NCBI RefSeq assembly: GCF_028389875.1
Contig: NC_084678.1
Location: forward strand, 12,988,899 to 13,052,898
DNA length: 64,000 nt
Direction of reading: 5' to 3'
From: Rhea pennata
Taxonomy: Eukaryota > Chordata > Aves > Rheiformes > Rheidae
Under the pieces are notes generated by a model. It did no database searches. It saw only the letters and a list, made by a program, of their open reading frames with translations, and was not told the DNA's origin. The position numbers were made by a program, and so were the translations under genes. Below are positions 24,488 through 52,437 of this stretch, in pieces. Position 1 is the stretch's first letter. Every line of letters starts with the position of its first letter.

Positions 24488-24704
24488 ATTCCCTGGTCTA
24501 CTTGATCATAGTTTCCAGAGATCTATGTAAAAGATGAGTTTAGAAAAGAGTTGTTCCTCCAGCTCCCGAGTCTTCCTCACTAAGAAGATACCTGCATGGA
24601 GTTCCGGGATGCAATCCATTTTGGGAAGCTCTTCAAACATTATAGAGCAGGAAATACTATTGAAGAGCTCTCTAACTTACCGTGACAAACAGAGTCCGGC
24701 AATG
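24488..24704 (-). pseudogene. PIEZO relic last exon (inner helix and C-terminal domain)
   Basis: After CTTTCTTCAG it reads IAGLC, then in shifted frames GK and VRELFNSISCSIMFEELPKM (PIEZO2: VREFFSGISHSIMFEELPNV), IFLVRKTRELEEQLFSKLIF (PIEZO2: IFLVRETGELELEEDLYAKL), and after a further shift ETMIK, TAG (24498-24500), TRE. The family ends ETMIKWTREK. This fixes the 3' end of the relic gene and its minus-strand orientation. Confidence 0.96.
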
Positions 24705-25903
24705 CTGAAGAAAGGAAGAAAACAAGGACAGTATTTGATTTTTTCCCCCCCTCTTTTTCCTCAAAAAAAAAAAAAAAAAAACAACTTCAGCTTTGTGAAA
24801 CTAGTAAATTCTCATCTCCCTGTCGCTCTGGGCACGCAGTATCTGCTGCCCAAACCTACTGTGGGGGAAAAACTTAAAGCAGTTATTTTCATTAGTGATT
24901 CAGTCTCACTACTGAAATTAATTGCAAAATGTTCTAATTTCGTTGCTGTGAAATTGAGTTTTAAATCATCTGGTAGAAACCTCTTTAGATTAATCAGTTC
25001 TGATTTTGAAATTTAGTGCTTTACCAAAATTAGGCAGATTTCTACATGAAGACTAGCCTGCAGTTTTGTGAGCCTGGGTTAAATTCTAGTATTATTCACC
25101 ATTGCAATTTCACTGAATGCAGGACGTCCAGGTAAAACAGAAATGGCTCACTAACATTCTTATTTTGCTGGTTCTCAAAGCATGTCATGCTGCTGGAGTT
25201 GAAAGGAACTTAAGCCAGCTGACCAGTGCAGGTAAGAAGTCTAATATGAAATACTTGAGTAGCAATAGGAAGACTAAACAGGATAAATACCAAGGAAATC
25301 AAAACCTGAGCAACTGCTTAAGTTTGCTTAAGCAAGATAAAACAAAAAGAGCAAAAGGGTGTGATGTTGGTAGTACATTGTTTGCCTTCTTACCCACATT
25401 CTGCCAAAAGTCCCAGGCCAGAAGGGCTGACTTTGTCCTTGAGGATGATCGGCTCCGTGTTGTTGCAAACCTTCCTAGAGCGTCTTGTACTCTGCTCTTC
25501 AACAATTCGTCACTCAGTAACTTGGCTTGAGGATGAGTTGGGGGGCAGCTGCTGTAGTTTTAGGGTTATATTTTGGAAGGAGGTGATTTTGTCTAGATCT
25601 TGTGCTTTTTGAGAAAGAGCTGTTTCACAGATACAAAAATTGAGTCTTTAAATTTTCTTAATAACATCTCTTGCTGTGCCCCATCCATGTTATTCTTTCC
25701 TCCCTTTTAGAGGGGGAAGTACTTTCTAGGGAAGAATTTTCTTACTCGTACAAGGAAGTGATTCATGAGCTGTGTACCCAAATAAGTGATGCTCTTCCTT
25801 TTATGTATCACAGAGGTGCTGGGATCATTCTTGTAAGCCCACACTGTTTCTTTACTACCACTCCACTACCTCCTTTATTTTCTTACCCACTTTCAGATGA
25901 TAT

Positions 25904-26253
25904 GAGGGGGGGGGATCTTATCAATGTGTATAAGTACCTGAAGGGAGGGTGTCAAGGGGACAGGGACAAACTCTTTTCAGTTGTCCCATGTGACAGGACA
26001 AGAGGTAATGGGCAGAAATTGAAGGACAGGCAGTTCCGCCTGACCGTGAGGGGGAATTTCTTCCCTGTGAGAGTGACGGGGCCTTGGACCAGGTTGCCCA
26101 GAGAGGTTGTGGAGTCTCCTTCTCTGGAGATCTTCAAGGCCCATCTGGATGCAACCCTGTCTACCATGTTCTAGGTGACCGTGCTGAGCAGGGGGGTTGG
26201 ACTAGATGATCTCCAGAGGTCCCTTCCAACCTTACTGGTTCTATGATTCTATG
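25904..26253 (+). mobile_element. CR1 LINE, 5'-truncated
   Basis: Contains the C-terminal end of CR1 ORF2 (reading [20 protein letters not shown]), then the characteristic GGTTGGACTAGATGATCTCC 3' region, and ends in TTCTATGATTCTATG, the ATTCTATG-type 3' repeat of CR1. It is severely 5'-truncated, as is usual for avian CR1. It is inserted on the plus strand where the cap-domain exons of the PIEZO relic would be expected. Confidence 0.95.
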
Positions 26254-27020
26254 CTGTTTTAGCTTCTGCTGCAGTGCTTGCCCTCAAGTATCTTGGTGTG
26301 AGGCCTGGAAGCAACCTAGAAAAGGGGAAATGCCAAAACTGCCTTGGAAGTAGCAAATATTCAGTGTTAGAAATGAATTTGTGGGGTAGTTACCAAACAG
26401 AAAGAAGCCTGTACTGAGCAGCCCAACTGGAATTCAGTGGCCGCAGCTGCCTCTCCTGCTGAGAGCCCTGGGTGGCTTGAGGCGAGCCTATGGCAGAAGC
26501 TCCCTGAAGTTCTTATTGCCCCTATCACGAGCCTGACTGAACACTTTACAGTGACTAGTGCACTTAACTTTACAGGCCCCTCCATTAAGTCATTCCAGCT
26601 TAAATTATTAAATAATTAGATTGTCATTACAGCCTAAATGGTTACAGCTGTAGAGCCATTGCAGGCCCAGCGCTTTTCAGAAGAGGCTGATGACAGGTGT
26701 CTTGGAGGTGGAAACTTCATCTTCTCCACCCTCCTGGCTAGGAAATGGTCCTAGCAAAGTACGCTTATTTCTGTAACACTAAGTCTTTGCCAGTGCACAT
26801 TTTGTAACACCTCCCTGAAGAGAAGGAAAAATACTGACGTTGGCTCCATCCTGGTCCTGTTCAGCGTTTGAATGATTTGGTCTTGTATTTCCTTCTCCTG
26901 GTGCCCCACCGTGTGTTTGCCAGACACTTCCACGTTCTCTGCCGGGGAGGCATACTTGGGGTAAGATTGACAGAGGTTGCTTCAATTTTATCCTCTCCTC
27001 TTTCTCCTTCTCCTCCTCCT

Positions 27021-27059
27021 CCAAAAAAACAAAACAAAACAAACAAACAAACAAAAAAA
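27021..27059 (+). repeat. A-rich simple repeat (CAAAA/CAAA units)
   Basis: Run of A7, CAAAA and CAAA units preceded by TCC repeats. No element body was recognised on either side. Confidence 0.8.
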
Positions 27060-27916
27060 GCTCCAGTGGAGACTGCTGCCTTCTGGCAGGACCGGCAGCC
27101 CTGGCCGCCCAGGAGCACCCAGAGCACAGGGGCAGGACTGGCCACGGCAGAGGTCACCTGCTGCTTTTTCGGGCTGTTTGAGCTGCCGCTGGGGGAGCGC
27201 AGGGCGCTGCTCTGAGGAGCCGTGAGCTCTCCCAGGAGCAGAACTGCCCTTCTGCCCAGGTCTCTTACAAGAGCAGCTTAACCTGGAGGCAAGTTCGAAC
27301 TACCAAAGTTGTGCTGCTGAGTTTCAGTGAGCAAAAGGTCTATCTTGCAACCAGGAGATGTGCTTAGAAGTGATCAGATTGCTTTTTAAAACCCAGGGGG
27401 AATGGGTGTTTCAAGGACTTTCCCAGATTGAGCATGTTCGCCTGTCTTTATGGTATCTATCACAGTTCATACGTTCTTGGGTGACACTTAGCAGGTGAGG
27501 GGCGTAATGATTTGTTGGGTCACTGCTGCTTGTGTACAGGGCACCAAGTTCTTCTGCTGAATGCTCATGGTGAATAGTGACTAGGAAAGGAAGAGAAGGA
27601 GAGTCTGAGACAGTCTAAGTGCAACCTGTAGCCCATAGCATAAAGGTGACGTATAGCCTAGGGAGACGGATTAGCTTAGTCTCTTATTCTGTTAATATGG
27701 AGAGAAAAGCTATTCTGGAGGACCCTGTGGTCTGCCTGCCACACGAGGGGAAAACTGCTCTCATCGACTGCAGAGAGTCTGGGTTGCTGGGTGTTTGCAA
27801 ATACCTCCTTCTGCATCCAGAACAGGTTTTACTAACGCTAGCGAAATCTGTAATGTTGAGAGGCAGAAAGAAACTAAATGGATCTCACTGCTTCCACATT
27901 TCTTACCATCCCTTAC

Positions 27917-27957
27917 CTTTTTTCTGTCGTTCACCTCCTGCCGCTTTGTAAGCGGCA
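27917..27957 (-). pseudogene. Possible PIEZO relic exon (RYPQPRGQKKKK region)
   Basis: A 41-bp stretch between a GTTCAG acceptor and a GTAAGG donor ends in a Lys-rich reading (NDRKK) like the PRGQKKKK segment that follows the anchor in PIEZO2. It is in the right position. The identity is too short to be certain. Confidence 0.4.
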
Positions 27958-28039
27958 CTGAACAGCCTTCCACTTACATTAAGGAGAAAATACTCCAGAG
28001 TTTTTAATCAGGAGGGATTGCACAGCCAGAGTCTCTCAT

Positions 28040-28181
28040 CTTCTCAGATTCTCTTCAGCATTTCAGAATGAAAATGTTTGCATATAAATCCTTGACAAAG
28101 ATCCAACTAGCAAGGATGAGAGTTGTTTCAGTCCAGTCCATGAGAGTCCAGAGCTCTGTGAGGAAAGGCACCAGGAGAAAC
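28040..28181 (-). pseudogene. PIEZO relic exon W (anchor region with PF-x2-E-x6-W motif)
   Basis: Reads FLLVPFLTELWTLMDW, keeping the family's PF-x2-E-x6-W signature, then TETTLILASWIFVKDLYANI (PIEZO2: TDTTLSLSSWICVEDIYAHI). Two residues (VW) are missing after MDW. A TGA at 28055-28057 replaces the Trp of KCWRESEK. The exon ends GAGAAG followed by ATGAGA, where the family boundary would need GTGAGA. Confidence 0.95.
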
Positions 28182-30497
28182 CTATAGATTGAACCAAAAA
28201 ACAACTTATACCTTTTAGACTGTTGTATTAGGTAAGCCCAAGAAGTTGGAGTCGTAGCTGCAGGTCTTCACTGGCATGTTTTCTTGACGTGGTCCCTGTT
28301 GGGTGTATTAGACTTTTTCTGAAGCTCCTAATTTTAAGTCTGTTGGACAGCTGCCAAGTGTCCAGGGGGTTCAGGAGCCACAGAAAGGTACAATCTTCTT
28401 TGGGTGCCGTACGAGAAAGGGAAACATAGAACACCCGTCCTGTTTGTAAAATTCTGGACAAAGCAGCTTTCTGGAGAAAGGGCTTTGGGACATTAAGACA
28501 GGCGTCCGTATTCCAGGACTGTTCTAGGTGAATTGGGACATCTTGTTACCAGAGAACTGTTGTTTTCTACAGTAGGGGCTAAGCACCAGCTAGAAAGGGA
28601 TCCCAGAAGAATAGGGTCCATTTGCTGTACTGACTCAGGCTCCGTACAAACCCACACTAGATAATTGGACTGATTTCTTCCATTTGCACATAAAAGGGAT
28701 AGAATTATTGTGACTTATTCTTTGGTTCTCATTGTGTTTTCTGCTGCAAAATCTGTTGCCTTAGTATATAATAATATATAATGACTTCTAGCCTCTGAAC
28801 GGGTAAAAAATGGGTTCAAAAACAGCAGTGCAATGATTTGTGCATGTGCTGCTTGAAATCTAGGCACATAGCTTACAGTAGGGATGTTTTTTTTCTTTCG
28901 TGTTTTCTTTCAAACACTTACACAAAATCCGCAGAGAGAGTTCCAGGCAGTGTCCACCCATATGAAAACAGACATTCTTTCCATAATCTTTTTATAGATT
29001 TGATAATATTTAACTCAGCATGTATTAAAAATACATTGAGTACATAAAATTCATTTTAAATGTCACCATATGGGCCAATGGCTTTTTAATATCACTGCCA
29101 CAAGACTACCTATTTCCTATCTGGATCCATTCCAATGGCAGCTCCAGGAGGGAAATATATTTAGTCTGTATTTACTTAGTGTGTTTAACTTTCTGTTAGT
29201 GTCTTTGGCTCATCCCAAGGCCATGCTATTTTGGGATGATTTATACAATATTTACATTAAATTCTGCTAATATTTCCTTGCCTCTTGAAGCTGGATTACA
29301 CTATTTACATCTCAAAGGCCCAAGATGGAGGAATAAGCAGCTGTTCCAGGCACCAGAGAGAATTTAGCGTAGGGGTGGCTGCCAGAAATGAGACCGGGTT
29401 TCTCAAATACTCGTGGAGTAATTATTTAGAATTGGAACAGTCTCCTATCAGGGAAAGGGGTAAGGCTGACCACAGCAGCAAGAAAGACTGTCTATATTCA
29501 GGGGTCAAACAACAGCATTCAGATACAGCTCATGTTCTGCAAAGAATTTTTGGTGCACTTGCCATAAATTGCAATTATTCTAAACTCAACCATGGAAAGA
29601 ATGTGCCTGTCGCCTCTTAGGCGAGTAGAACCAGGCCTGCAGTTTGCATACTTTGCTGCAAAAGCTGAATGTCACTGTTGTACTTACCCCTGAAATAAAA
29701 GAGGTTGATGCAATTGCAGCTCTTTGTCAGAAGGTCGCCTAGGATGCGACCTGGATTTGATCTGATAGGCTAGCAAACCAACACATGGTTTCTGTCAAAG
29801 CTCTTGGGAATCAGCAGATTACAGGATTTGTTTGAGTTTCACTCAAACACTTCCCATTAAAGTGGTTTTTAAGAACATAAATGTGACTATTTCAAAATAA
29901 CTGCTTTGACCTCTTTGTTAAAATCTGGACCAAATCTGAACCCAGCAAAACCCAAGATTCAATGAGGAGGCCATATGCCAGAGCTGGCAGCCCTGTTAAA
30001 CACTGTTCTTTTCTCTGTAGCTTCAACAATAAGAAGTCCAAGAAGACTGGGGTCTACTTATAGAGAAGAGCTTTTGACAGGCTATAGCTAAGACTGGGCA
30101 AATATTTCTGCAGAGATTTTTTTCCTTTGCTATATTTCATACAAGCAATGAGCAAATGGCTCTCTTTCCTGGTAGAGCTTAGGCTGCCTTATCGGATCAA
30201 GTATTTTTTACCACATCTGAGCAGGCATGTAAACCACAGACATGATTGTCTGCAGAGGCAAACTAAACTACAGTTAATCCTATGTTTTTTGCATAATCAT
30301 TGCCCAGAACATGCTGTGTTTCTCAGTTGTGGATTATTGGAAAACCTGAAGTTCACAGTGTCTGTCTACCTACCCTTTTCAAATATCCTCATCGTAGCTT
30401 ACCAACCAAAAGCATATTTTCTCGCTTCTCCGTTGAAAGCGGTGGATGAGCCTTAGGGCGTAAGAAGTGTTTTATATGAAACTGGGCAGGCTAATAC

Positions 30498-30712
30498 CTT
30501 TTAGTATTGCCTGGCAAGATGAAAAACATCCAAAAGTGAATGCCAAAGACAAGGGTCACCCAGAATACATGCTTCCCAGGCATGATCCTCCTTAAGTATA
30601 CAGCCCAGTCCACAGTCGTTGAGCAAAACTGAAACAGGAGCATCACTAAAAAGGCTGCTGGGACCAGGTCTTCTGAAAGCAATTCAGTGATGTCAGTAGC
30701 AACTGGATGTTT
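30498..30712 (-). pseudogene. PIEZO relic exon U, undamaged
   Basis: Open through 71 codons. Reads LLSEDLVPAAFLVML, then FGIHFWMFFILPGNTKR. PIEZO2 has SLSEDQVPGPFLVMV and FGIHFWMFFILPGVTER. This is the transmembrane region close to the pore module. CATTTTAG acceptor in phase 0, GTATTA donor in phase 2. Confidence 0.96.
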
Positions 30713-33693
30713 CTAAAATGAATTGTAGAAACTAGGGTTTGTAATAGAAAGAAGAGGAAAATCTGTATACCAACACACGTGACTCAGAGTTCTGGTGATT
30801 TGATATATCCAGTAGAATAACTGAAAATTTGGATCCATGTTCACATGTGTTGTTGCTGTTTAGGTAAGTAGTGCCACTGAATGCATCTTCAGGAAAGACA
30901 CAGATAAACAGCAACATGGATGCATAAGAAAGGGTTCAAATATAGTATTTTAATAGTTTTCTTTGTTAGTATGTTTTATGTACGAATGGGCGCCAGTCCT
31001 ACATTCAAGCCTGACATGTTTGTTTCTTGAAGCTCCTGAAACCAAATGCTTTCATACTGCTCTGCTCTAGATTTCTTATCCCTAGGTTTCAGAGGCTTTC
31101 TTTTTTTCTTTTTTTTTTCCTGGAGGGAAGAGGGGAGAAAAAAGGGGGAGGGGGATTCAGATCCAGATCCAGCTTTTGATTTCTCTGTCCTTTTTCTTTT
31201 TTCTTTTAATTGCTAGAACTATTTGGAAAGTTTTTTCTCTCTTAAGATGCACCAATCATTATTGTTACCTCTCTTCTCACATTGGTATCCACTTCTCTTT
31301 TATTGAAGCAACAGTCAACTGTGGTAAGAGATGCAGAGCTAAGATCCTTAGTATGCATTTATGGTGTAAGCTCCCTTTTGCATCTCATTGCAAAGCTTGG
31401 TCTAGAAAAGTGCATTGCAGTATGCAAACAGCCAAGCTAACAACATTTCAAAGACTGAGCTGAGCATTTTTTCTAGAAATTTATTGTTCCCAGTTGGCAC
31501 TGAGAGTAGTTTGGAAGTGAAGCTGGCCTTCTCACTCTGGCTCTGGAAATCTGAACCTGAAAAAGCGTTTCTCTTGTTACAGCAGTGCCCTATGTAAGTC
31601 TGATCTTGATGGAATTCAGGTCTGTTCATTTCCTCAGGGAGTCATCCTAGGCCCTCTGATTTATTTCTGATTAGTTTTCATGTCTTATCTCTGCACTGAG
31701 ATCTGCTCCCATCCTGCACAGGAGCCCTTCAGTATCACCTAGGAAAGAAAAATGCTTTGAGAAAACCTCACAGCACATGGTTCACTTTTCTTGGGAAACA
31801 GTGACTTTTTGCCACATCTGCATTCCATTTTCATGATCTTTTCTTGTGCCTCCCCTTTTTGCATTTTCATGGTTAGTCACTCTGATATTCATCTGAGCTG
31901 TTGTGTTTCACTGGAGTTTGAGGCTGAATCAGAAATCAAACAAACAGAAAAAGAGTGGCTGTAGATCAGAGGAAATTCCCATCGTGTTCATAGTGGCAGA
32001 GCAAAGCAATCAGCTAAAGTGAATACAGAGTGTATATAGGCTTATGAAGACAGACTTCCAGTTCTCGTCATTTGAACAGTCTGTCAAAAGGTTCTCCTCA
32101 ACCCCAGCTTTAAGAATAAAGTTTCTCTCTCTACATTTGAATTTATGTTATGGTCCCTAAGTCGAGAATTAAATGATCTTGCTCCACAGGCTATAGAACC
32201 AAATTCACTCTTGTGCTTACCCTAAAACCCCAGCGATAATGATAATGAAAAGGTAATGATAATAAAATTGATCACATCAACCAAAAACATCAGAGCATAG
32301 ACATCACACACAGGTCTGTATTCCAGATGAATGATATAGAAAAGCTGCCTGATGAGCCTAGGGACCTAGACTGGAAGGGCACTAGGGAATAAAAATAGAA
32401 TTTTTTAGTGGAAATTTCTGCTAGAGAGTCATTAAAATGCATAAATTCATGTCCTTAATGCATTTGAAGCCTATGCATTTCCAGCCTATGAAGATCCTAT
32501 GAAGACTGGAATTAATATAACTGCTGGGTGAAGTGCGTCTTTTTAAGGGAGGCAAGAAGTAATATTCAAGTTATGTTTTAACCCTCATCATCTGTCTTGA
32601 GTATCAGTTGTTTCTTCTTATGCTTAAGAAGTTTCTTCTTACTACTGAGATTCTTTCCAAAAAGACCCCATCTCTTCCTTGCTTCCTTCTTACAAAGCTT
32701 ATCCACCAAAGGAAAGACAAATAACATTTGCTTTAAGAAAAGGAATTTTTTTTATCATAGTATGTTTCCCAATTTCCTTGGGAAGATGACTGGTTTTGTT
32801 TTAACTATGGCAAAAATGCACTCATTCAGTCAACACAGTTGTACTTTTGTTGTACTCTTCCTACCTTAATTTAAAATGGAACATGCTTCTCTTTAAGTGT
32901 ACAAAAATAGCTTTGAGAATCCAAAGGCCTCCATTCACTGGAGTTGTTAGACTTCCTATGAAAACACTTGCTGAAGGATTATGTCATCTGAAAAGATGCC
33001 ATCCCATTGACCCAGGTTCCTCTTCCACTAAGCTCTCTGCACTGCTTTTTCTTTTGCCATCTAATTGGTCTTTTCTTCTTGGAATCAAGAATATTGGTAC
33101 ATCCAAAATCCCACAGTCCATGGCACTAGAAGGACTATTTTAAGAAAACATAATACAATGTTATGAGTTATGAAAATTGCATATCACCCATCAGATAAGG
33201 AAAAGGACAAAAATGGGAACAGCCATAAAGAGAGCCTGCACTTGAGATTTAAGAAAGGCTTTTATAGTGAGTAAATAATAAACCCAGCCTCACAGATGTA
33301 GGTCAACATTTCACATTCCTTTAAATTTTTGGCACAATTTGCTGTGCTTCAAAGGGACCATAATTTTTCCTCCCAAGGCTCCAACTACTTCAGTATATAT
33401 ACAGCTTCTATTAAATATGTAGCATTTTTTTTGAATCATGTAGCCAAAGAATTAGGGCCAGTGGTGTTTAGGTCTGTGGTTTAGCCTTTTACAAAGCTGA
33501 GAAACAGATCTTAAGTTTACTTTCAAATCAATAGTTGGATGCTGAGGCTATACTCCTTAAAACATAAAAGTCAGTTTTGGATTCATAACAAAAGTTAAGA
33601 CAAAGCACATTCATCAGCATTTGATTTAACTGCAAATATACATCAGAATTTAGAAGAAAGAATGATTTCCTTTTCTGATATAGGACCACTTAC

Positions 33694-33882
33694 CTTCAGG
33701 ACTGACCTGTGAAAGAACACAGCAAGTAGCTGGATGAGATCAAAGTGTGCATCGCCAGGCTTCTTCTCAGTCCCAACCATATTTGGCAGAACGAATGGTT
33801 CTTCTGCACTGATAGCACAATACAATTTGGTTGTCCATGGAAAGAATCCAAACTGCAAAATATATTTGACAACTACTGTTAT
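33694..33882 (-). pseudogene. PIEZO relic exon S, undamaged
   Basis: 189 bp, 63 open codons, with a TCTCTCTAG acceptor and a perfect GTAAGT donor. Reads VVVKYILQFGFFPW, later DLIQLLAVFFHRSVLK. PIEZO2 has IVVKYFFQFGFFPW and DLIQLLALFFHRSILK. No lesion is visible, unlike most neighbouring remnants. Confidence 0.96.
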
Positions 33883-34272
33883 CTAGAGAGAAAAAAAAAT
33901 AGAAACCGAATGAGCTGGAAGATACAAAACTTGTGGAGAATAAGTATTTTCAGAAGGATTTGCAGATCTTTTAAGAAAGGGGACTGGCTCCAAGAACCAT
34001 TGGGAACAACCAACAGACATTCTTAATGGTATGAAATTCTGGGGAGCAAGCCTTTCTCTGAAAGCCAGTAAAATTTTTTGGTGGATAGATATTTTATCTT
34101 TTTACTCAACTTCTTGTTTTCAGTCAATATACTTCTTACAGTTCATGCACCATTTTTTAAGTCTTATCCTCTTGCTAATCCACTTAAATATTTGTCCTAA
34201 GAGAAATTTACTATGTTCTTAAGAAAAAAGCCACTCAATTCAGTAATTAGAAAAACTTCAGCAGTAGTGAGA

Positions 34273-34348
34273 AAAACATATCTGTGTATAAGTAGTGGCC
34301 ATCATCCAGAAAAACATACCTGTGTATAAATAGTTGCTGTCATCTAGA
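34273..34348. repeat. 38-bp tandem duplication of a PIEZO exon end with its donor site
   Basis: Units 34273-34310 and 34311-34348 are about 80% identical. In minus-strand sense the upstream unit (34311-34348) has the Trp-to-stop change but keeps the GT donor. The downstream unit keeps Trp (FWMMATTYTQ) but has AT at the donor position. Confidence 0.95.
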
Positions 34349-34587
34349 AGAATTTTGTAGGCCTTGTAACAGATAACATGACCCAGAGGAAAATAAGAAC
34401 AGACAGAACCACAGTGAGGGTTGAAGCAGAAACATTGTAGTTCGGAATGATCACAAAATAGCAAAACACTTCTGATTCGGACACTGCGGCATTACACAAA
34501 GCAAAGCCCAGCTTTAAAGGATTTAAAGGAGGAGACAGACTTTGATAAAAATTTGTCTGACTCTTCCAGTTTACTGTCATGAAACAT
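34320..34587 (-). pseudogene. PIEZO relic exon R (end of blade)
   Basis: Begins MFHDSKLEESDKF (PIEZO2: MFHDDELEESEKF) after a TTCAAG acceptor. A frameshift leads to SEVFCYFVIIPNYNVSAS (PIEZO2: SEMVCYFVIILNHMVSAS) and IFLWVMLSVTRPTKFF. A TAG (34344-34346) then replaces the Trp of RFWMM. It ends ACACAG before GTATGT. The last 38 bases, including the donor, are tandemly duplicated downstream. Confidence 0.96.
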
Positions 34588-36889: not shown

Positions 36890-36978
36890 GGTCTTTTCAG
36901 AGCCTGTAGGAATTTCTTCTCTTCCTCCAATTTATACAGCACAACTTTCTTCAGCTTTGCTGCAACAGCTCAGCTCCT
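36890..36978 (-). pseudogene. PIEZO relic exon P
   Basis: Begins RGAELLQ (PIEZO2: RGAELFQ). A frameshift then leads to KLEEEKKFLQALKR (PIEZO2: RIEEEKKSMDQLKR), the start of the cytosolic beam-proximal coiled region. CCTACAG acceptor and GTAAGT donor. Confidence 0.9.
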
Positions 36979-38251: not shown

Positions 38252-38414
38252 CTGGAAGCTAAGATCTTGGTGACCTTCAGATCTGCCACCACACAGAGGT
38301 AAGAGTAACTTGTGAAGATCCTTCACCATACTAGCAGGAAAATGAATTATATTGCATCCCAGACTATTCCTGCGTCATTTTCAGGTAGTTCACATTTCCT
38401 GTCCGCAGGAACTG
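38252..38414 (-). pseudogene. PIEZO relic exon O, two stops and dead donor
   Basis: One frame reads ELPENDAGIVWDAI, stop (TAA 38347-38349), FIFLLVW, stop (TGA 38323-38325), RIFTSYSYLCVVADLKVTK, then ILAS. PIEZO2 has EAGIIWDSICFAFLLLQRRVFMSYYF and then VVADIKASQILASRG. The exon ends TCCAG followed by ATACAC, where GT is expected. The next remnant starts with A GGA GCT GAG and completes the family's RGAE. Confidence 0.95.
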
Positions 38415-39011
38415 CTGGATGGGAGAAAATATCATGATAACTATTCAAATGTTCTATTTTACATGAAGACGTTAGTACAAGCATTGTCCAGTTTTCATGC
38501 AGAAAACGACACAAACATGTGGCTAGCACCTGGTGATTTGTGCGGGCCTTAAAAACAGTTAGGTGCTGTAAAACATCAAAAAACAAAACTGCAGTGGATT
38601 TGGAAATTTTGTGCACTACTCCTTGCTTCATTCTTAAGGGTCTGATCCAGAAGCACTCACTGGCTTCCTCTTGTTCTGCGGTCTCTATCTCCTGCCTCAC
38701 ATGCTGTCAAGTAATACATTGGACAAGTTACAGACATAAGTGACTCCAGTCATTCCTTTGGAGAATCTAGTACCTGATTCCAGTCAGTTCACCCAGCTGC
38801 AGAACACAATATATGATCTGCACTAAAGATCTTACACATTCCTGTGGTTCTGCGCTTTGCCCGTACTGCTAATGGTTCACTGTGTTCCCCTTGCTCTCTA
38901 CAAGAAAAATTCTGATGTTTATTCCTCTGAAGCAATACACCTGCCAACAACGATGCCCTTAAAGCCTCTTCTCTCCTTCCCAGTGTTCACGTTTACTTAC
39001 CAAAGTCATAC

Positions 39012-39096
39012 CTGGTGTGGTGTAGAACATGCCAAAGGTCCATCTTAGCCAGCAGTGATTTCTCAGGAGTTTGTCAAGATAGACATATGCTCTGAT
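39012..39096 (-). pseudogene. PIEZO relic exon N
   Basis: Open frame IRAYVYLDKLLRNHCWLRWT, matching IGACGYIGTLVHNSCWLIQA of PIEZO2 without gaps. It starts in phase 0 after CCAACAG and ends in phase 1 at GTATGA, both agreeing with its neighbours. Confidence 0.85.
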
Positions 39097-39763: not shown

Positions 39764-39985
39764 AGCCAGGAGAGTCTTCATCACTATTACTAAGATAGTG
39801 TGTGTAATCAAATAAACCCACAGCCTAAGAATATTCTTGACTGGCTTGAGTAGAAGGCTGTTTCCAAAAAGCTATCAGAGAGCCCAGACAAAAGATGTTG
39901 ATTAGAGTTGTCCCAGTGATAAAAATCAGGCAGAGCATGAACCAGAAGTGACAGTTGAACCACATTAACCATATCCAGATAGGAC
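39764..39985 (-). pseudogene. PIEZO relic exon M, two frameshifts
   Basis: After CCTGCAG it reads SYLDMVNVV. A frameshift leads to FWFMLCLIFITGTTLINIFC (PIEZO2: FWFVLTIIFITGTTRISIFC). A second shift leads to LLLKPVKNILRLWVYLI (PIEZO2: LLLKPIKSILRYWDWLI) and IVMKTLLA, then a GTATGT donor in phase 0. Some residues between the last two blocks are missing. Confidence 0.95.
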
Positions 39986-40747
39986 CTGCAGGTGAGAAAC
40001 CATTGCAGAAAATGAACCCTCAGAGCATTACAAGGGACTCTGTCTGTTGTTCTATGAGCTATAGATTAAGATTGAAATTTGGATAATTTTTTTGATGTAA
40101 CATTGAGGATTCTGCAGCAACCTATTTTCCGATATCATGGCTTCACATAATTAAATGATGTTTTAAAAGCTATTTCTAATTGTGTCAGACACAGGCACTG
40201 TATTGGATTGTTAATACTTGGACTTTTCTGTAAGAGGAGCAGCAACCATGCATTAGTTTATTTTTTAAAGGGAGAAAACTTATTAGATGGTAGAGCAAAC
40301 TGTTAGGAGAAATGGGAGCGTCTCCTGATTTCTTCAGATGGAACTAGATGTTGAAGATATAATTTAGTCAAACACAAGCTAATGACTCATGTAAATAGCA
40401 GTCAGTTCTTGATTTTGCCAGAAAATAATGGAAAATGGGATACCCAGGATCAATGAAAAACATACAAACTCATAAAACATATGCAAAATTAGTCTAAGGA
40501 ATATATTTTCAGGGATTAATGGAAGAAAGAAAAGTCAGTACTAACATCTGCAGTGCAGAACAGTAATCTCAGTTAGTCTTGGCTGAGGTGGTAGCATTTG
40601 CAAATGCCTTTCTCTTCTGTAATCTCCTGAGCCAAGATCAAAAGATTCAGCATTTCCACCTGTTACAGCTTCCTGGCTCTCACCTGCAGTGTATAAAGTT
40701 TGGCACGGGACTGTACTGGCTGAGGACAGCTAGGTCTAAATTATGAC

Positions 40748-40853
40748 TGATTTAGATGTTTCACGTCTCCTGCCTGCGTTCTCAAACAAGCTTTATTCCT
40801 GTCCTCGAACACTTGCCACTGGAGGGAGGCAGAAAGCAGAATTAGGAAGTCAT
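40748..40853 (-). pseudogene. PIEZO relic exon L2
   Basis: Open frame DFLILLSASLQWQVFEDRNK, very close to DFMLLLCASLQRQIFEDENK of PIEZO2, followed by an AGD motif also present in the family. Good TTTCCAG acceptor. The donor (GTCATA) is poor and the 3' border is uncertain. Confidence 0.93.
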
Positions 40854-40913: not shown

Positions 40914-41008
40914 TTAGGAAAAAGCTAGCATCAGGTCTAGCATCCGGCAGACAGAGCCATTTAATCAGATTGGAATGACTGACCAGTGAGGGGTCTTCCA
41001 CAGGTAAT
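40914..41008 (-). pseudogene. PIEZO relic exon L1
   Basis: With the G carried over from the previous exon it opens DYLWK (PIEZO2: DYPWRF), then shifts frame and continues SNLIKWLCLPDARPD (PIEZO2: DNIIKWLYFPDFIVRPN). It ends in a GTATGA donor, phase 1. It is separated from the next remnant by an intron of only 60 bp. Confidence 0.93.
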
Positions 41009-42425: not shown

Positions 42426-42655
42426 CTTTGCAGAAAACACGGGGGAGTCTAAGACATACCAAATACTGGAAGGTCATCATGGTGGCAAGGAAACAGCAGT
42501 ATCTTGGCCAGACTTCAGCCACTGCCTTTCTTCTCTGATGCCACGGCAGACAGATTATCCAACATACATGGAACAATGCATAGAAAACATACATGGAGCA
42601 ATGCATAGAAATCCATGTGGTGCTGTATAACATTAATGGCAGCAATGAGACACAT
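42426..42655 (-). pseudogene. PIEZO relic exon K, broken by a 25-bp tandem duplication
   Basis: Begins MCLIAAINVIQHHMDFYAL (PIEZO2: FLMSVNVIGQRMDFYAM). A 25-bp tandem copy then shifts the frame. It resumes in the shifted frame with WHQRRKAVAEVWPRYCCFLA (PIEZO2: YRRRRKAIAEIWPKYCCFLA) and ends LPRVFCK before GTTTGT in phase 1. Removing one repeat unit would restore length agreement with the family. Confidence 0.95.
42561..42610. repeat. 25-bp tandem duplication within a PIEZO relic exon
   Basis: Two adjacent 25-bp units, 42561-42585 and 42586-42610, differ at one position (A/G). The unit corresponds to the FYALLHV codons. Its length is not divisible by three, so it shifts the frame. Confidence 0.97.
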
Positions 42656-43433: not shown

Positions 43434-43736
43434 CTGGGAAGAAAGCTGTGAAACACGGTAATGCTTTGGAGCAGAGGAAGGAATCATTTCAGGGAGTAGG
43501 AAGGCACACTCTCTCCCAAGCAATCAGTTAAAAAAAAAAGGCCTATAAGCTTAAGATCTGGGGGAAGATAGAGAATGATGGAGCCTCTGCTTCTTTCTAA
43601 TATGCTTTCTTTCTGCTTTGGAAGACCAGGTGGTGGTCCCAACCTGAATATAACTTGTTATAGTTACTAATCTAGGCATGATTTTGTTCTGCCATTGTGC
43701 CAGAAAAGAAGCTTATAAGAAAAAATCATTACTGAC

Positions 43737-43800
43737 CTCTTGAAGAGTGATCCAGATAACTCAAGTAGAGACAACTTTAAGGGAGTGCAGTTCTAAGAGT
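43737..43800 (-). pseudogene. PIEZO relic exon J (blade)
   Basis: Reads LLELHSLKVVST, stop (TGA 43761-43763), VIWITLQEVS, aligned with ILELHIIKIVSSYIIWVSVKEVS of PIEZO2. The acceptor is GCATGCAG. The GTCAGT after GAG may be a donor, or the homology may continue weakly to about 43690. Confidence 0.8.
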
Positions 43801-45000
43801 CTGCATGCTAATATCTCAGTCTCATAAACAAGTTCCAAAAGTTTCAGGTGAAGAACAGCCAACTTGTTGATAGCTAGCATCCAACTGCTAGACTCTTCCG
43901 CTATGAAAAAGAAGTGCTGCTTTAGTGCTTTCACACAGCCTTCACCTCAAGTTTCTCAAGTTCCCCTTTCCCCTTGGTGAGTTATGAGTTCCTGATTTAT
44001 CCTAACTTCCTAGTATGTCAGCATAGCTTAAGAAGTAGTGTGATGGAAAATGGTTTGTTGAATTAGAGAAACTAGGGACAAGCTACACATTCTTGATCTG
44101 GCTTTATGATACTGCCATACAGTAAGCAGTAGGCGTAAAGTATGAATAGTTGGAGCAAAACTTATGAAATAATTCCCAGTATCTATCTCACTTGATTCAT
44201 CCTGCATGTCTCCTGATGAAGGCCTTTTGCCCTGTATTGCTGGAATTTGAGACTGGAGGTTTCTAGTGTTAATCCAAATAAATTATATTCTAACTTTGCT
44301 TTCCAGCTTTCTTTAGATTTTTGTCTTTGGGGAGACTAGAGAATTCACCTGTGTCCAGCTGAGACCAGGAGGCACTGCACCATGCCGGATATTGACATCG
44401 TGTAACACCAAACTGCAAACATCACTGTACTGTGGTGTGATCTATAAATATATTTGCCGAAACACTTCTACTCCCATGAGCTGTGTGTTCAGAACCAGGG
44501 ACAGCTGGAGGTATGAAGTCTTGATAGTGCTTTAAACTGGACCAATACCCACCCAATTTGCAGTGAACACTGATAAAATCATTGATTTCTTTACAATCCT
44601 CTCAACCTCTTTCCATAATTCTTAGCAGAGGTCACACAAGTTCTTTCATGCTGCTTAGGGTCATTCAGTTGACACTCAAAGAACTTTCAGTTCTTTCACC
44701 TGATTTTTCCTGCTTAGTCATTCCCATGGCTTCATCCATTGTTGTATCTTCTGTTTAATCCAAGGATGCCTGACTAATACTATGCAGGAAAAGATGGAGC
44801 AGGGGTGGGAGGGGGAAGAAGCATTGTTACATTTTGTTTGATGGGGCAAAGCTGGGTATATTCAGAAATTAGGATACTTGAAGACCATTTGTAGTTGCTT
44901 GCAGCTAAATTGAGCTAAACTCAGTTGAGTTGTGTGCTTTTGCTGTACAAGTAATTTCTTTTCAATAAGAGTTTTAAGAGTTCTAGGGAAAAAAAAATCT

Positions 45001-45104
45001 AGCCTCTCTAAAACTGGTGGAGGAGAAAGATGGCCACTGGCTATCCTGGGTACAACTGTGAGCCAAACATACTTCAGGATTTTTCTCGACTAGTTACAGT
45101 GCAC
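45001..45104 (-). pseudogene. PIEZO relic exon I (blade)
   Basis: After TTTTCAG it reads VHCN, stop (TAG 45090-45092), then SRKILKYVWLTVV. The family has VHYEWWRKILKYFWMSVV, so the stop replaces the first Trp. A frameshift follows, with further stops around VAIFLLHQF (family VLIFIYTYQF). The 3' border is uncertain. Confidence 0.9.
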
Positions 45105-45174: not shown

Positions 45175-45585
45175 AAAAAGCTGTCAATACAGTCTTTTTC
45201 TTAAACAAGCATCAAATTTCCTCTCCCAAGACCCAAACTTGATGCATCTTCCTTGAGAAATCTGACAATGTAGTGAAGGCTGCTTAGCTCTTGATAAAAT
45301 CTTGCTGTTTTTCCAAGCCTGAGTTTTCAGTGTTTCCAGCAATGACAAAATGAGGAGTTAGAAGAGATGTTTTTTTCCATTTTACTTGAGTAATTAAATT
45401 CAATTTTAAACTCCAGGATGCTATCTAGGGGTATAATACAGACCAGTAGTTGTACATTCTGCTTTAAGTCAAAGCTAAAAAAAAATAAGAGGCAGACTTT
45501 ACTCCACCTGATTCAATAGAAATGTGACAGTTTACTCCAGCCAAGGAGCTGCCGTAAAAGATGTTATTAATTTGATTTTGCTCAT

Positions 45586-45767
45586 TTGATACAGAGCCAT
45601 GCATAACAGAAAGAACACGATATAGAGTATTTTGTACACAGCTACTTTGCCACCAAAACTGACAGCAAAAAATATGGCAGCACAAAAATAGATCCAGTAT
45701 TTAACCAGTACTCCCCTAAGCAGAGAGCCAAGGACTTTCAGAGGAAGATTTTGTCTTTTATTCCCTT
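45586..45767 (-). pseudogene. PIEZO relic exon H (blade), donor destroyed
   Basis: Open frame reading LVKYWIYFCAAIFFAVSF, then VYKILYIVFFLLCMALYQ, one of the most conserved PIEZO segments (FIKYWIYVCGGMFFFVSF...ALYQ). The exon ends at CAA followed by ATGAGC, where a GTGAGC-type donor is expected. The donor GT has become AT (45584-45585). Confidence 0.95.
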
Positions 45768-46543
45768 CTGTTATAAAAAGAAAGAATACAAATCTGTTGG
45801 GCATGATGCTATCACTGCACCATTCCGACAACTTTTTGATAATTACACACAGCTATGGTTGCAAACTCCTCTCTTACTAGGTGACTTATCTTATATTTAG
45901 ACATAGTCACCTAGCAACAGAGGCTGAAAATGCAGAAGATACTGGCGGTCCTATAAAATGGTCACTGCTCCCGAGCACAGATAGCAGGCTCTCCCACCAC
46001 ACACGGCAAGGCTCCGCTTGTTTGTCCCAAAGCCATTTACCTAAAGCAGTAACCTGAGTGAGCAGAACAATTTGTAGAAACAAAGATATGTTCTTAGCAT
46101 CAGCAGCTTCTGCTTTAGGCGCTGTATATGAGCCTCGCAATATTCCGTGTTGCTCACAGAATGGCTGGGAAGTCTTTACTGTGAGCGTCAATATATCACC
46201 CATTTCTTCCCTGTGCTTTATGGCAGGAAGCACGGGAAATTTGAGAAGTCTGTTCTAACGCCAATAAAAATAATAAAAAAAACATGGCTAAGTTTTTGCA
46301 AAAGCCTACGTACAAATGCATGGAAAAGCCAGGTAGCTGTCTACACAAATTAGTTGCTCATGTCTGCACAATTGATATTTAGCAAAACTATCCTTAGAGT
46401 ATTTTGCTATGAGATTCCAGATTTAGTTTAGCAAAACCAAATGCTTGGCTGTATTGCTAAAGAGAAAGTCGGAAAACCACAGCAGGCTCGATTTGTGTTG
46501 TTTCCTTACCATTCTCAGTCACTATCACTTCTTGGGATGGTTC

Positions 46544-46615
46544 TTATTTATCCTTCATGTGCCTCTCAATCACATGCTGCCTTAGCAACAACCAGAATGT
46601 GGATGCATACAGGAT
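46544..46615 (-). pseudogene. PIEZO relic exon G (blade helix)
   Basis: After a TTGCAG acceptor the reading is ILYASTFWLLLRQHVIERH, matching ILFTITFWLLLRQHLTEQK of PIEZO2. A TAA follows at 46544-46546 and no GT donor is visible at the expected end, so the 3' border is uncertain. Confidence 0.9.
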
Positions 46616-47418: not shown

Positions 47419-47691
47419 CTTCACACCAAGATGCGTGCCTGGCAAGGAATATGGTTTTAAGTCAAAGTCGACGAGAACCGACTGTGCAGGGAAGAGCTCT
47501 GTGTGTTCTGTGACCCCTAGGGAGATGTTCAGCCCTACAAGGAAACGGAGGACAAGCAGGGTGTTCCCATAAACAGTAAGGAACAGAGAACTATGCGAGG
47601 CATAATGTCTCTAGTCACGAGCCGTTCAAATGATTCAGGACCAAATCAGCTGTGCAAAAGTCAAATAGCTGTTATGGGTGATGCTCCAAAC
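47419..47691 (-). pseudogene. PIEZO relic exon F (blade helices), three stops
   Basis: Reads VWSITHNSYLTFAQLIWS (PIEZO2: AWSITYHSWLTFVLLIWS). The same frame then passes three stops: TGA 47635-47637, TGA 47626-47628 and TAG 47611-47613. It resumes FLTVYGNTLLVLRFL (PIEZO2: FMVVYGNLLLILQYI) without any indel. 273 bp, phase 0 at both ends, good acceptor and GTAATA donor. One of the stops replaces a family Trp. Confidence 0.95.
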
Positions 47692-48730: not shown

Positions 48731-48775
48731 CAGCATGGCAATCAGGCCACTGACACAGCTCTGATTCACAACGAA
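48731..48775 (-). pseudogene. PIEZO relic exon E (start of conserved blade helix)
   Basis: Short reading FVVNQSCVSGLIAML, matching FIMKQSYICALIAMM of PIEZO2, with an acceptor CAG and a GTAGGA donor in phase 0. The next relic exon continues VWSIT exactly as the family does. The true 5' limit of the exon may lie further upstream. Confidence 0.82.
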
Positions 48776-50105
48776 CTGCCCGTGTGCAGCCAGAGAGTCA
48801 GTACTGTTAACCCAGGCAACCTGTCTTCACACCCCTGTGTGTCCTGAGGCTGTGAATTTACACAACCACCTTCCTTTTTGTATAAGGTGTCCGAACCTCC
48901 CCAAATACTGCACAGAGAATATCCCCTCGTCAGTGCAATTGGTGTCGAAGGCCTGTAGTGAAAGTCTTGCTTTACAAAAGCAAATAAGCCTCTTCATTTG
49001 AAGAGGCTTGTGCTCTTCTGCAGTGAGAAATACTATGCATCAAACCCTGCTCCTTGACATGGCTTGATGCTGCTCTTCCACTGAATGCTGGATTTGGCAG
49101 CTCCTTCGAAGTGATTTTATTTACCCAGCAGCCTGGCCCTCCCACTGCCATAGCTGCAAGATGAACCTGGCTTTTCTTTACAGTTCCCCCCTTTTTTTTC
49201 CCCCTAGAAAAAGTATTCTGAAAAGACTGATTTTTAGTTTTCATGTTCTTTTTGGTACTACATCCTTTCATCGCATTAAGTGGCAACAGTGCTTTGCTCT
49301 GCATTGCACTTAATCACGTAATGATCACCCTAGCAGTATTTTGCCTGATAAAGGACTACATCCTTCACAGATACTGGCAGGAACTTTGCAGGAAATGCTA
49401 TGTTCACGCTGTGAAAGGGGCATGTCCTGACAGCTTCCACTTGAGAAATAAGCTGACTAAAAATAAAATATTGTAGGTGTAGCCTCATCTTCCCGCAGAG
49501 GTTGTCTAGTGCAGCAGCATAGGAAGCTGGAACTACTTTCTAATGATTCATAGTTCCAGCATGTTGACATGGCTATTGAGATGTTAGCTTTCTGAATGTT
49601 GGATTTTTTAATAAGAAACTTAAATGGGGAGAGAGGAAAGCAGGACAGGAGAAACAATAGCTCTCAATTTCTCTGCATACATTTGTGTTGATAAGAGAAA
49701 GAAACAATCTACCTTATTCTTTTCATTCTTGGTCATCCATAGCATGTTATCCTCCTGCAGACTTCTGCTCCCTGCTGGCAGCAGTGGGATTTTTGCCCTA
49801 CTCTCCCACATTAAATGTCACTCCAGGATATCATACACCCAGAGCACAACTACACACCAGCCAGTGTTGATGTTACTAGCTGAGAGTAATCACAGAGTAT
49901 CAGCAAAACTTCTAAAACTTTTTCTCAGTAACAGAGTCCATTTATAAACCAGGAAAGTGGAAACATGTTTTTGAACATGACCTAGCACAGGAGAGATGAA
50001 TCTATACAGAATTTCCTGCTACTGACTCCTCTTGTGGAGCAATCCTGTAGAAAAAAAAAGAAACTCGCTTCTTTCTGATCATCTCTTTTATAGGTTTGTG
50101 TTTAC

Positions 50106-50300
50106 TGCACCACTTGCTCTGCCTTGCGCCTGTTTGTGTTTGTAGAGCACATCCTCTGCTCTAGCAATGTGACCAATGCATAATATAGTACAAGCAGTAT
50201 GACAAGATTTAAAAACGCTGGCCAGGTTAATCCAGGATGAACTTGCACTTTCCATGACTCTGTGATGTTTGTCTTGATGAGTACCATCATCCCAAAGAGC
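50106..50300 (-). pseudogene. PIEZO relic exon D (blade)
   Basis: Reads LFGMMVLIKTNITESWKV and then HPGLTWPAFLNLVILLVLYY, matching LFGIKSVIQTDCSSTWKI and NPDLSWYHHANPILLLVMYY of PIEZO2. The reading frame is open. The acceptor is broken: a fine pyrimidine tract ends in TG instead of AG (plus-strand positions 50301-50302). The donor is GTAAAC. Confidence 0.93.
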
Positions 50301-50938: not shown

Positions 50939-51174
50939 CTTGCATAAATGTCATCAGGAGGATGCTGATGCACTGGAAAACGGTGTCAAGTACAGGGAAG
51001 GGCAGAAAGGTGCCCTGCACCAAACACAGCCATCTGATGGGCTGCTGGAGCTGACCAAAGTAATGCTACGATGACAAACCCACCAGGAACACAAGCCCAA
51101 GAAGGTAAGAAAATAGATAGCAGATGTTGCAGAAGGTGTGATTACACATGGGGAAAAGTAGTCAATGAAATAGA
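50939..51174 (-). pseudogene. PIEZO relic exon C (blade helices)
   Basis: Reads ITPSATSAIYFLTFLGLCSW, matching the SLTSSVYFFVFLGLCTWW region of PIEZO2. The frame then shifts near 51045 to give AVFGAGHLSAL (family: FxAGHLIxL). It meets a TGA at 50986-50988 and finishes HPPDDIYAR (family: VPPNDYYAR) before a GTAAAG donor in phase 2. At least one frameshift and one stop. Confidence 0.92.
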
Positions 51175-51666
51175 CTGTGTTCCATGGCAAGCAACTTGTA
51201 CAGGTCACACACTCGGCAGAATAGCATCTCATTGATAGATATTGACTCAAGGTAACAAGAACATAAGCAGATATTAACTTCTGCCCTCTAGATAATCAGC
51301 AAAAATGAAAGGAAATTTTTGAAATCCTCATAGATCTCTGGACAACAGGTCTGCACTAAAGAAATGCTTTTTCAATTGCACAGCAACTGTACTATCTGAA
51401 CGCCCCATCATACAGCCTGGGTGACTAGAACAGCTGTTTCAAGAGCTATCTGTGAGTTGAGAAAGAAATTCTGCCTGGGAAGTACTACAAGTTTACAACA
51501 ATATTTGACACGATGACAACAATAACAGGTTCATAGCAAATAGTAAGCAAGAAAGCAAAAGTAACAGGGCAGTTAAGATCTGGTTGGTCCTTTTTTCTTT
51601 CATTTTTCTTTTTTTTTTTAATGGACTGAGGCCTGGGACTTTGAGACCTCTTCTTTAAAGCTTTAC

Positions 51667-51853
51667 TTGCTAAGCCTAAAACTACTTTTGCAGCACTGAT
51701 CCAAATAGCGTCAAATAGGATTTTCAACCCTGCCAGGAAGACAGTGATTTTATGCATGAAATGTGGTTTTCTCGCCCTTCTTTCTCTTCTCAAATCTTCA
51801 GCTGAGCAGCCAGACTGTATTCCATCACTATCTCCTCCTTCCACATCAGAGTC
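51667..51853 (-). pseudogene. PIEZO relic exon B (blade, cytosolic loop and helix)
   Basis: Open across 62 codons plus one base. It runs from an acidic start DSDVEGGDSDG through a basic stretch into ISAAKVVLGLA, the helix equivalent to TTAGKVVVTILL of PIEZO2. It has a good acceptor and a GTAAAG donor (phase 1). No lesion was seen in this exon. Confidence 0.88.
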
Positions 51854-52248
51854 CTGTGAAAAGTGGGAGCAAAATATCAGTGTGAAAGGTAAAATGAAAA
51901 CCAACCAATGGTTCATCAGCACTCAAACCATCTTTAATGTGCTTTTTCATTAGGGGAAATGTGTTTCAGTCTGGACACAGTAATGTGCAGAACAGGACAC
52001 AAAAATCTTATGAAAAGCAATTCAAGGTACATCTAAGTCTCTAAACATTGTGTTGTATATTCACAGCTGGAGTGTGAGAAGCTTTTCTGGGAGATCACTT
52101 AGGCTGTACAGTGAGCCAGAGAAAGCAAAACTTCTCTGTAGACAATTTATTTAGCTCCTGTATATGCTGCCAACAAATTTTACCCCAGCTGCTTGGCTTT
52201 TTAATATTTGTCGGCATTATAATTCAGATAATAGAGTACTGCATGTAC

Positions 52249-52437
52249 CTCTTCATTGTTCTTCTCTTCCTCCTCCTCCCCCCCTTGTTCCTGGCCTTTG
52301 GAATAAGACTGGTTCTTTTGGGAACAGGAGGTTTCATCAGTTTTTTACAAATTCTTGTAATTGTGATGCTAGTAAGAAACATTCCAACATCAGGAATCAG
52401 TAGGTGGAAGATATTCCCACCATTGACCTTGCTGAGT
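52249..52437 (-). pseudogene. PIEZO relic exon A (N-terminal blade)
   Basis: After an AG acceptor the reading contains LLIPDVGMFLTS, matching the VFVPDIGMFIAS segment of PIEZO2 (roughly residue 130 of the family). A C7 run on the plus strand (G7 in coding sense, 52278-52284) breaks the frame just before an acidic stretch that would read EEEEEKNNEE up to the GTACAT donor. The frameshift could be a real lesion or a homopolymer error. Confidence 0.85.

What the first reader, a model, noticed from the sequence alone, without database searches (positions are those of the whole stretch)
24488..52437. Remains of a third vertebrate PIEZO channel gene
Twenty-two or more minus-strand segments match PIEZO1/PIEZO2 in strict N-to-C order over 28 kb. 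Hallmark stretches include VKYWIY...ALYQ (45.6 kb), FITGTT (39.9 kb), CYFVII (34.4 kb), QFGFFPW and FFHRS (33.8 kb), FGIHFWMFFILPG (30.5 kb), PFLTEL (28.1 kb) and SIMFEELP (24.6 kb). Introns survive with matching phases, so it arose by gene or genome duplication, not retroposition. The copy lies between NPEPL1 and the expected GNAS site, where neither PIEZO1 nor PIEZO2 maps in humans. I do not recall a described bird PIEZO gene or pseudogene here; that novelty is unverified.
Basis: partly seen in the sequence, partly recalled or inferred. Interest (0 to 1): 0.95.

Follow-up and report, generated by a model that had tools for sequence, protein, structure and literature searches.

The report
Dead third PIEZO gene in bird
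This stretch of what looks like a bird genome holds the decayed remains of a third PIEZO touch-and-pressure channel gene, which turtles, crocodiles, lizards, amphibians and fish still carry intact, so vertebrates seem once to have had three such genes rather than the two studied in mammals.

Summary
Minus strand 52,455-24,483 holds a collinear, intron-bearing, broken PIEZO gene: 32 confident pieces, 1,723 aligned codons, 63.5% identical to a turtle protein, 20 in-frame stops, 20 frameshifts. It is a remnant of neither PIEZO1 nor PIEZO2: both read intact elsewhere in this genome. The relic falls, at 100/100 support, in the sauropsid part of a third PIEZO clade that also holds amphibians, lungfish, coelacanth, ray-finned fish and a chimaera fragment. 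In databases these are named PIEZO2-like (51 of 120 names), plain PIEZO2, or not at all. Grouping the relic with own or bird PIEZO2, or with PIEZO1, is rejected. GNAL-PIEZO2-APCDD1 and GNAS-relic-APCDD1L have the same order and orientation; 17 of 39 relic introns match PIEZO1/2 introns in position and phase. So the gene is PIEZO2's block-duplication partner, most likely from the early vertebrate genome duplications, lost here and decaying neutrally. No third-clade bird or mammal protein was among the hits listed (capped lists). No description was found in print, but only open-access text was searched and five searches failed.

The parts
52240..52455 (-). relic exon, N-terminal blade (turtle residues 12-82), 1 frameshift
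   Evidence: tblastn
51667..51853 (-). relic exon (83-149), no stop
50939..51147 (-). relic exon (151-220), 3 frameshifts
50139..50300 (-). relic exon (222-274)
   Evidence: Pfam Piezo_TM1-24
49709..49806 (-). relic exon (276-307), linker like that of turtle third PIEZO
49345..49452 (-). relic exon (309-344), linker like that of turtle third PIEZO
48731..48845 (-). relic exon (346-383), 1 frameshift
47419..47691 (-). relic exon (384-471), 3 stops
46510..46615 (-). relic exon (472-506), 1 stop
45586..45767 (-). relic exon (508-567), VKYWIY...ALYQ, open
45054..45104 (-). relic exon (568-584), 1 stop
43715..43900 (-). relic exon (722-785), 1 stop
42426..42655 (-). relic exon (950-1017), insertion and frameshift at a 25-bp tandem duplication (42561-42611)
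40914..41008 (-). relic exon (1019-1051), 1 frameshift
   Evidence: intron match
40684..40853 (-). relic exon (1053-1106), 1 frameshift
   Evidence: intron match
39764..39985 (-). relic exon (1108-1188), FITGTT, 2 frameshifts
   Evidence: Pfam Piezo_TM25-28
38979..39096 (-). relic exon (1189-1224), 2 stops, 1 frameshift
38252..38398 (-). relic exon (1226-1273), 2 stops
36891..36978 (-). relic exon (1275-1303), 1 frameshift
34320..34587 (-). relic exon (1690-1775), CYFVII, 1 stop, 1 frameshift; a 38-bp tandem duplication lies at its 3' end (34270-34349)
33694..33882 (-). relic exon (1776-1838), QFGFFPW...FFHRS, open
32927..33125 (-). relic exon (1839-1905), HGLWD and linker like that of turtle third PIEZO, 1 stop, 1 frameshift
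32559..32700 (-). relic exon (1906-1953), 1 stop, 1 frameshift
32250..32359 (-). relic exon (1954-1990)
30497..30731 (-). relic exon (1992-2069), FGIHFWMFFILPG, 1 stop
29688..29802 (-). relic exon (2070-2121), 2 frameshifts
27945..28182 (-). relic exon (2123-2234; its 3' part is uncertain), PFLTEL anchor, 2 stops, 1 frameshift
27465..27580 (-). relic exon (2235-2287), cap start, 1 frameshift
26839..26954 (-). relic exon (2323-2360), cap
26236..26315 (-). relic exon (2362-2385), cap, 1 stop
25394..25625 (-). relic exon (2387-2463), cap and inner-helix start, 1 stop
24483..24704 (-). last relic exon (2465-2546), inner helix and C-terminal domain, SIMFEELP, 2 stops, 1 frameshift
7740..23007 (+). 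NPEPL1 neighbour, 12 exon matches, tail to tail with the relic
   Evidence: recalled human query
2262..2360 (+). STX16 C-terminal match
   Evidence: recalled human query

Best explanation
This is a unitary pseudogene of a third vertebrate PIEZO channel gene. The gene arose together with PIEZO2 by duplication of a GNA-PIEZO-APCDD1 block, most likely in the early vertebrate whole-genome duplications. It stays intact in many non-avian, non-mammalian vertebrates, encoding by homology a trimeric mechanically gated cation channel. In this bird it lost function and decays neutrally in place between NPEPL1 and GNAS. It makes no channel now. Shown here: homology, lesions, retained introns, phylogeny, paralogous block, PIEZO1 and PIEZO2 that read intact. 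Inferred: that the host is a bird, channel function of the intact orthologues, whole-genome rather than large segmental duplication, and the date of loss (about 0.08-0.12 neutral changes per site, tens of millions of years at an avian rate that I recall).
For: Spliced alignment ranks turtle third PIEZO (4,330) and crocodile (3,974) far over PIEZO2 (2,550) and PIEZO1 (2,012); the three controls of that call stay under 370. There are 20 stops and 20 frameshifts in 1,723 codons. Identity to turtle is 53-73% in the 8 of 9 domains with enough relic residues, whereas the crocodile orthologue ranges 52-90%, the pattern of lost constraint. Trees: relic inside the sauropsid third clade at 100/100. AU rejects relic with 9 bird PIEZO2s, all PIEZO2s and PIEZO1 and with own PIEZO2 and own PIEZO1. 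PIEZO1 (C13) and PIEZO2 (C2) of the same genome read without stops. C2: GNAL(-), PIEZO2(+), APCDD1(+); C16 reversed: GNAS(-), relic(+), APCDD1L(+). Introns at the same column and phase as PIEZO1/2: 17 of 39 with the turtle guide (no null run); with human guides 11 of 46 and 12 of 49 against rotation nulls of mean about 0.3, maximum 4.
Against: The order of PIEZO1, PIEZO2 and the third gene is not rooted: no invertebrate or lamprey sequence was used. The relic branch is long; the tree program also warned of long branches and odd letter make-up for PIEZO1 rows and one or two others. The relic's place beside crocodile is weak (87/50, 55/90, not recovered) and turtles as sisters are not rejected (p 0.30). 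The third-PIEZO neighbourhood in turtles or crocodiles could not be seen, so orthology rests on sequence. Only 19 of 240 first-look candidates were scored in the own-genome search. The labels GNAS/GNAL and APCDD1/APCDD1L rest on identity and place. Only two flanking pairs of the block were tested.
Confidence: 0.95

Rival explanations
1. A recent duplicate of this bird's PIEZO2 or PIEZO1 that has decayed.
For: PIEZO2 scores above PIEZO1 on most segments, and phmmer of one exon against solved structures puts PIEZO2 first.
Against: Relic is 43% identical to own PIEZO2 and 40% to own PIEZO1 but 64.5% to turtle third PIEZO; AU rejects both groupings (p 9e-108 and 2e-7). One linker is 59% identical between relic and turtle, where turtle and human PIEZO2 are 16% alike.
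Confidence: 0.01
2. A processed (retroposed) PIEZO pseudogene.
For: None found.
Against: Kept exons that follow each other directly in the protein are separated by 60-1,518 bp, and 17 of 39 introns sit at the same column and phase as introns of PIEZO1/2 in the same genome.
Confidence: 0.005
3. A third PIEZO born by an older local or segmental duplication, not by the two rounds of early vertebrate genome duplication.
For: No rooted tree; I tested only the GNA and APCDD1 pairs of the block.
Against: Two flanking gene pairs are duplicated in the same order and orientation on two chromosomes. A chimaera fragment sits in the third clade (100/99), so the gene predates living jawed vertebrates.
Confidence: 0.08
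4. Not wholly dead: the remnant makes a functional RNA or a truncated peptide.
For: Some exons remain open; no expression data were seen.
Against: Stops and frameshifts are spread along the gene, the first ~95 residues are not found, and decay is flat across domains. No Rfam match at gathering score in the window.
Confidence: 0.04

Closest known systems
Third-clade PIEZO proteins ('PIEZO2-like', PIEZO2 or unnamed) of turtles, crocodiles, squamates, amphibians, lungfish, coelacanth, ray-finned fish
   Same: Same clade at 100% support; linkers alike; 65% identical to sea turtle over 1,631 columns
   Different: Those are predicted proteins, many full-length at 2,400-2,850 aa and some partial; this one is broken
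PIEZO2
   Same: Same domain order, introns in common, sits in a paralogous block beside a G-alpha gene and an APCDD1 gene
   Different: Only 43% identical; reads intact in this genome on another chromosome
PIEZO1
   Same: Same domains, introns in common
   Different: 39-40% identical; intact on a third chromosome (C13, 22.4 Mb), where no G-alpha or APCDD1 match lies close by
Zebrafish piezo2a and piezo2b
   Same: Fish PIEZO2-type genes beyond piezo1
   Different: The guide site printed for piezo2a (PMC10801085, passages seen) reads ATLIRLW, 6 of 7 as in human PIEZO2; four third-clade proteins checked have no such site (best 4 of 7). Carp 'piezo2a tandem duplicate 2' falls in PIEZO2. A review gives 66.9% and 62.6% identity of 2a and 2b to human PIEZO2 (PMC8526690, passages seen), above the 44-51% of the third-clade Danio aesculapii protein P0107

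Membership tests
PIEZO channel family | PIEZO Pfam domains in N-to-C order | tested here: met
   Five models match in order on the minus strand
PIEZO channel family | Mechanically gated cation current | not testable with these tools
   Pseudogene; pore helix and MFEELP stretch are conserved in the six intact third-clade proteins printed, one with MYEELP
Third vertebrate PIEZO clade (PIEZO2-like) | Falls inside the clade, outside PIEZO1 and PIEZO2 | tested here: met
   100/100 sauropsid subclade; AU tests
Third vertebrate PIEZO clade (PIEZO2-like) | Same chromosomal neighbourhood as in other vertebrates | not testable with these tools
   No reptile or amphibian genome context on hand
Ohnologue of PIEZO2 | Collinear duplicated block | tested here: met
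   GNAL-PIEZO2-APCDD1 and GNAS-relic-APCDD1L, same order and orientation
Ohnologue of PIEZO2 | Duplication dated to early vertebrate genome duplications | tested here: inconclusive
   Chimaera fragment inside the clade (419 columns); no lamprey or invertebrate root
Unitary pseudogene | Disabling lesions at the ancestral locus, introns kept | tested here: met
   20 stops, 20 frameshifts, shared introns
Unitary pseudogene | No intact copy elsewhere in the genome | tested here: met
   22 matches, all at PIEZO2, PIEZO1 and the relic (19 of 240 candidates scored, so a lower bound)
Processed pseudogene | No introns | tested here: not met

The most novel reading that the evidence does not exclude
Jawed vertebrates ancestrally had three PIEZO channels. 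The third, a whole-genome-duplication partner of PIEZO2, is still intact and constrained from fish to turtles but has been overlooked under the names PIEZO2-like or PIEZO2; mammals and birds each lost it, and in this bird the loss may postdate the origin of living birds.
Probability: 0.8. Interest if true: 0.85.

Novelty: new member of a known kind. Interest (0 to 1): 0.78.

Why it matters
PIEZO1 and PIEZO2 are major force sensors of vertebrates (recalled), and mammals are described as having two (PMC8526690, passage seen). A third ancestral gene, intact in turtles, crocodiles, lizards, amphibians and fish and lost here, means that mechanosensory work in those animals may rest partly on an unstudied channel, and that mammals and birds, if they lost it as the listed hits suggest, rewired touch or pressure sensing. 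Studies of 'Piezo2' in reptiles, frogs or fish may be mixing two genes. The pseudogene gives a loss that can be dated and set against changes in skin, lung or vascular mechanics.

Tried and rejected
Considered and rejected: recent copy of PIEZO2 or PIEZO1; retrocopy; chance matches (controls). I thought that zebrafish piezo2b might be the third gene; the 62.6% identity to human PIEZO2 quoted in PMC8526690 speaks against it, and no zebrafish sequence was fetched, so it stays open.

Led nowhere: N-terminal exons (one weak candidate); splice sites without any preference were noisy (12 of 71 in register within 6 nt, null mean 3.3, maximum 11 in 1,000 trials; 14 of 71 within 12 nt, null mean 6.1, 2 of 1,000 trials as high); Rfam and tRNA scans empty; VAPB as a further paralogon pair did not complete. 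Rows left out of trees: three aligned rows (Natator, Pelodiscus P0020, Latimeria P0053); searches used chosen subsets. Tree columns were limited to those where the relic has a residue and at least 80% (70%) of rows are filled.

Papers. Searches answered: (two returned none). Failed; met the cap. 'PIEZO3' in any position gave 7 papers, none whose title or abstract start concerns a vertebrate PIEZO gene (listing only). 'PIEZO2-like' gave 4 papers, 3 listed; one passage opened (PMC7618154) speaks of currents, not a gene; the others were seen in the listing only. PMC10801085: passages. PMC12652723: passages and one section. PMC8526690: passages. The library holds open-access papers only.
Full report
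What is there. On the minus strand from 52,455 to 24,483 the window carries a broken PIEZO gene. Five PIEZO Pfam models match segments in the right order. I wrote a spliced aligner that allows introns, stops and frameshifts. Guided by the loggerhead turtle protein P0003 it chained 40 pieces; I set aside 8 weak ones and kept 32, with 1,723 aligned codons, 1,094 identical (63.5%), 20 in-frame stops and 20 frameshifts. Scores with the same settings: loggerhead 4,330, other turtles 4,254 and 4,166, crocodile 3,974, two lizards 3,563 and 3,485, two amphibians 3,635 and 3,574, lungfish 3,428, coelacanth 3,362, sturgeon 3,106, human PIEZO2 2,550, human PIEZO1 2,012; reversed turtle and crocodile proteins and turtle on the plus strand gave 357, 365 and 362. 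With slightly cheaper introns, six controls with the human proteins gave 432-518. Two small tandem duplications, of 25 and 38 bp, sit in or at exons.

Not PIEZO1 or PIEZO2. The window is part of a 1.27-Gb assembly of 180 contigs. The 7 Piezo_cap matches lie at three places: C2 (PIEZO2), C13 (PIEZO1) and the relic on C16. A search with the whole turtle protein gave 22 matches, all at these places, though only 19 of 240 first-look candidates were scored. Own PIEZO1 (2,483 aa) and PIEZO2 (two overlapping parts) align from end to end without stops or frameshifts under strict penalties, with 49 introns, and 33 and 22; a few of these introns have odd splice sites and are probably false. They are 73.6% and 84.6% identical to the human proteins; the relic is 43.2% identical to own PIEZO2, 39.7% to own PIEZO1, 64.5% to turtle and 60.1% to crocodile third PIEZO. 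The own PIEZO2 fits birds: apart from the human full-length protein, the 24 best by score of 121 proteins compared are bird PIEZO2 fragments at 88-91% (no crocodile or turtle PIEZO2 was in that set). With the genome size and a CR1-like tail I take the host to be a bird, as inference.

A third clade. A protein search with the relic listed the best 120 of 1,959 hits. By BLAST against references, 115 of the 117 tested belong to a third clade and 2 to PIEZO2; 3 of the 120 served as third-clade references. The names listed are turtles, a crocodile, squamates including a python, frogs, salamanders, caecilians, lungfish, coelacanth and ray-finned fish; no bird and no mammal. A second search with a 469-aa stretch listed 120 of 192 hits: 40 are third-clade, none of them from a bird or mammal by the names shown; of 60 bird proteins 58 are PIEZO2 and 2 PIEZO1 (one of these, P0330, by a margin of only 10%), and all 7 mammal proteins are PIEZO2. 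Trees: 32 rows by 1,632 columns, 40 rows by 675 columns with 9 bird PIEZO2s and a chimaera fragment, 27 rows by 1,658 columns with own PIEZO1 and PIEZO2. All put the relic in the sauropsid part of the third clade at 100/100. Its exact sister is open: with crocodile 87/50 and 55/90, elsewhere; turtles are not rejected (p 0.30). AU p-values: relic with bird PIEZO2 2e-43, all PIEZO2 4e-9, PIEZO1 2e-50; own PIEZO2 9e-108, own plus human PIEZO2 9e-6, own PIEZO1 2e-7. The program warned of long branches (PIEZO1, one sturgeon PIEZO2, the relic) and, of PIEZO1 and PIEZO2 meeting. The linker after THU8 is 59% identical between relic and turtle but 16% between turtle and human PIEZO2.

Origin. The relic keeps introns: with the turtle guide 17 of 39 lie at the same alignment column and phase as introns of own PIEZO1 or PIEZO2 (no null run for this count); with human guides 11 of 46 and 12 of 49, against rotation nulls of mean 0.29 and 0.32, maximum 4 and 3. 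Order on C16: APCDD1L(-) 12.886-12.889 Mb, STX16(+), NPEPL1(+), relic(-) 13.013-13.041 Mb, GNAS(+) 13.121-13.219 Mb. Order on C2: GNAL(-) 108.756-108.878 Mb, PIEZO2(+) ending at 109.478 Mb, APCDD1(+) 109.780-109.798 Mb. Turned round, the two blocks have the same order and orientation. GNAL and GNAS, and APCDD1 and APCDD1L, are told apart by identity and place, with human gene order recalled. This is what whole-genome duplication leaves. The chimaera fragment in the clade (100/99) puts the gene before living jawed vertebrates. I had no outgroup to root PIEZO1, PIEZO2 and the third gene.

Function and loss. The six intact members printed keep the pore helix, the M(F/Y)EELP stretch and the C-terminal domain (the role of these parts is recalled), and the closest solved structures are PIEZO2 and PIEZO1. 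So they most likely are force-gated cation channels; no measurement was seen. In the relic, identity to turtle is flat across domains with data (53-73%; the linker at human residues 1360-1660 has only 8 relic residues), while crocodile ranges 52-90%: constraint was lost. A simulation of neutral decay fits about 0.115 changes per site from stop density and about 0.08 from identity, roughly 40-60 million years at 2e-9 per site per year, a rate that I recall; lost exons make this a rough guess.

Known or not. Of the 120 names shown, 51 contain '2-like'; the others are PIEZO2, unnamed, or once PIEZO1. Seven answered searches of the open-access library showed no paper about a third vertebrate PIEZO; five further searches failed and one met the cap. 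A subscription or preprint description may exist.

Noticed in passing
26195-26231: CR1-like 3' tail motif on the + strand, inside a relic intron; the only place in the window that matched any of the CR1 tail patterns tried.
   Followed up: partly
42561-42611 and 34270-34349: 25-bp and 38-bp tandem duplications inside or at relic exons; the first goes with a frameshift.
   Followed up: partly
P0107, P0310 (database proteins): Fish proteins annotated PIEZO2 mix two clades: Danio aesculapii P0107 is third-clade, carp 'piezo2a tandem duplicate 2' P0310 is PIEZO2.
   Followed up: partly
P0001, P0028 (database proteins): Coregonus P0001 and Acipenser P0028 are the only 2 of 117 tested hits that class as PIEZO2; P0001 scores oddly high in two searches and may be a merged gene model.
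   Followed up: no
15191-15237: Run of 47 T in an NPEPL1 intron.
   Followed up: no
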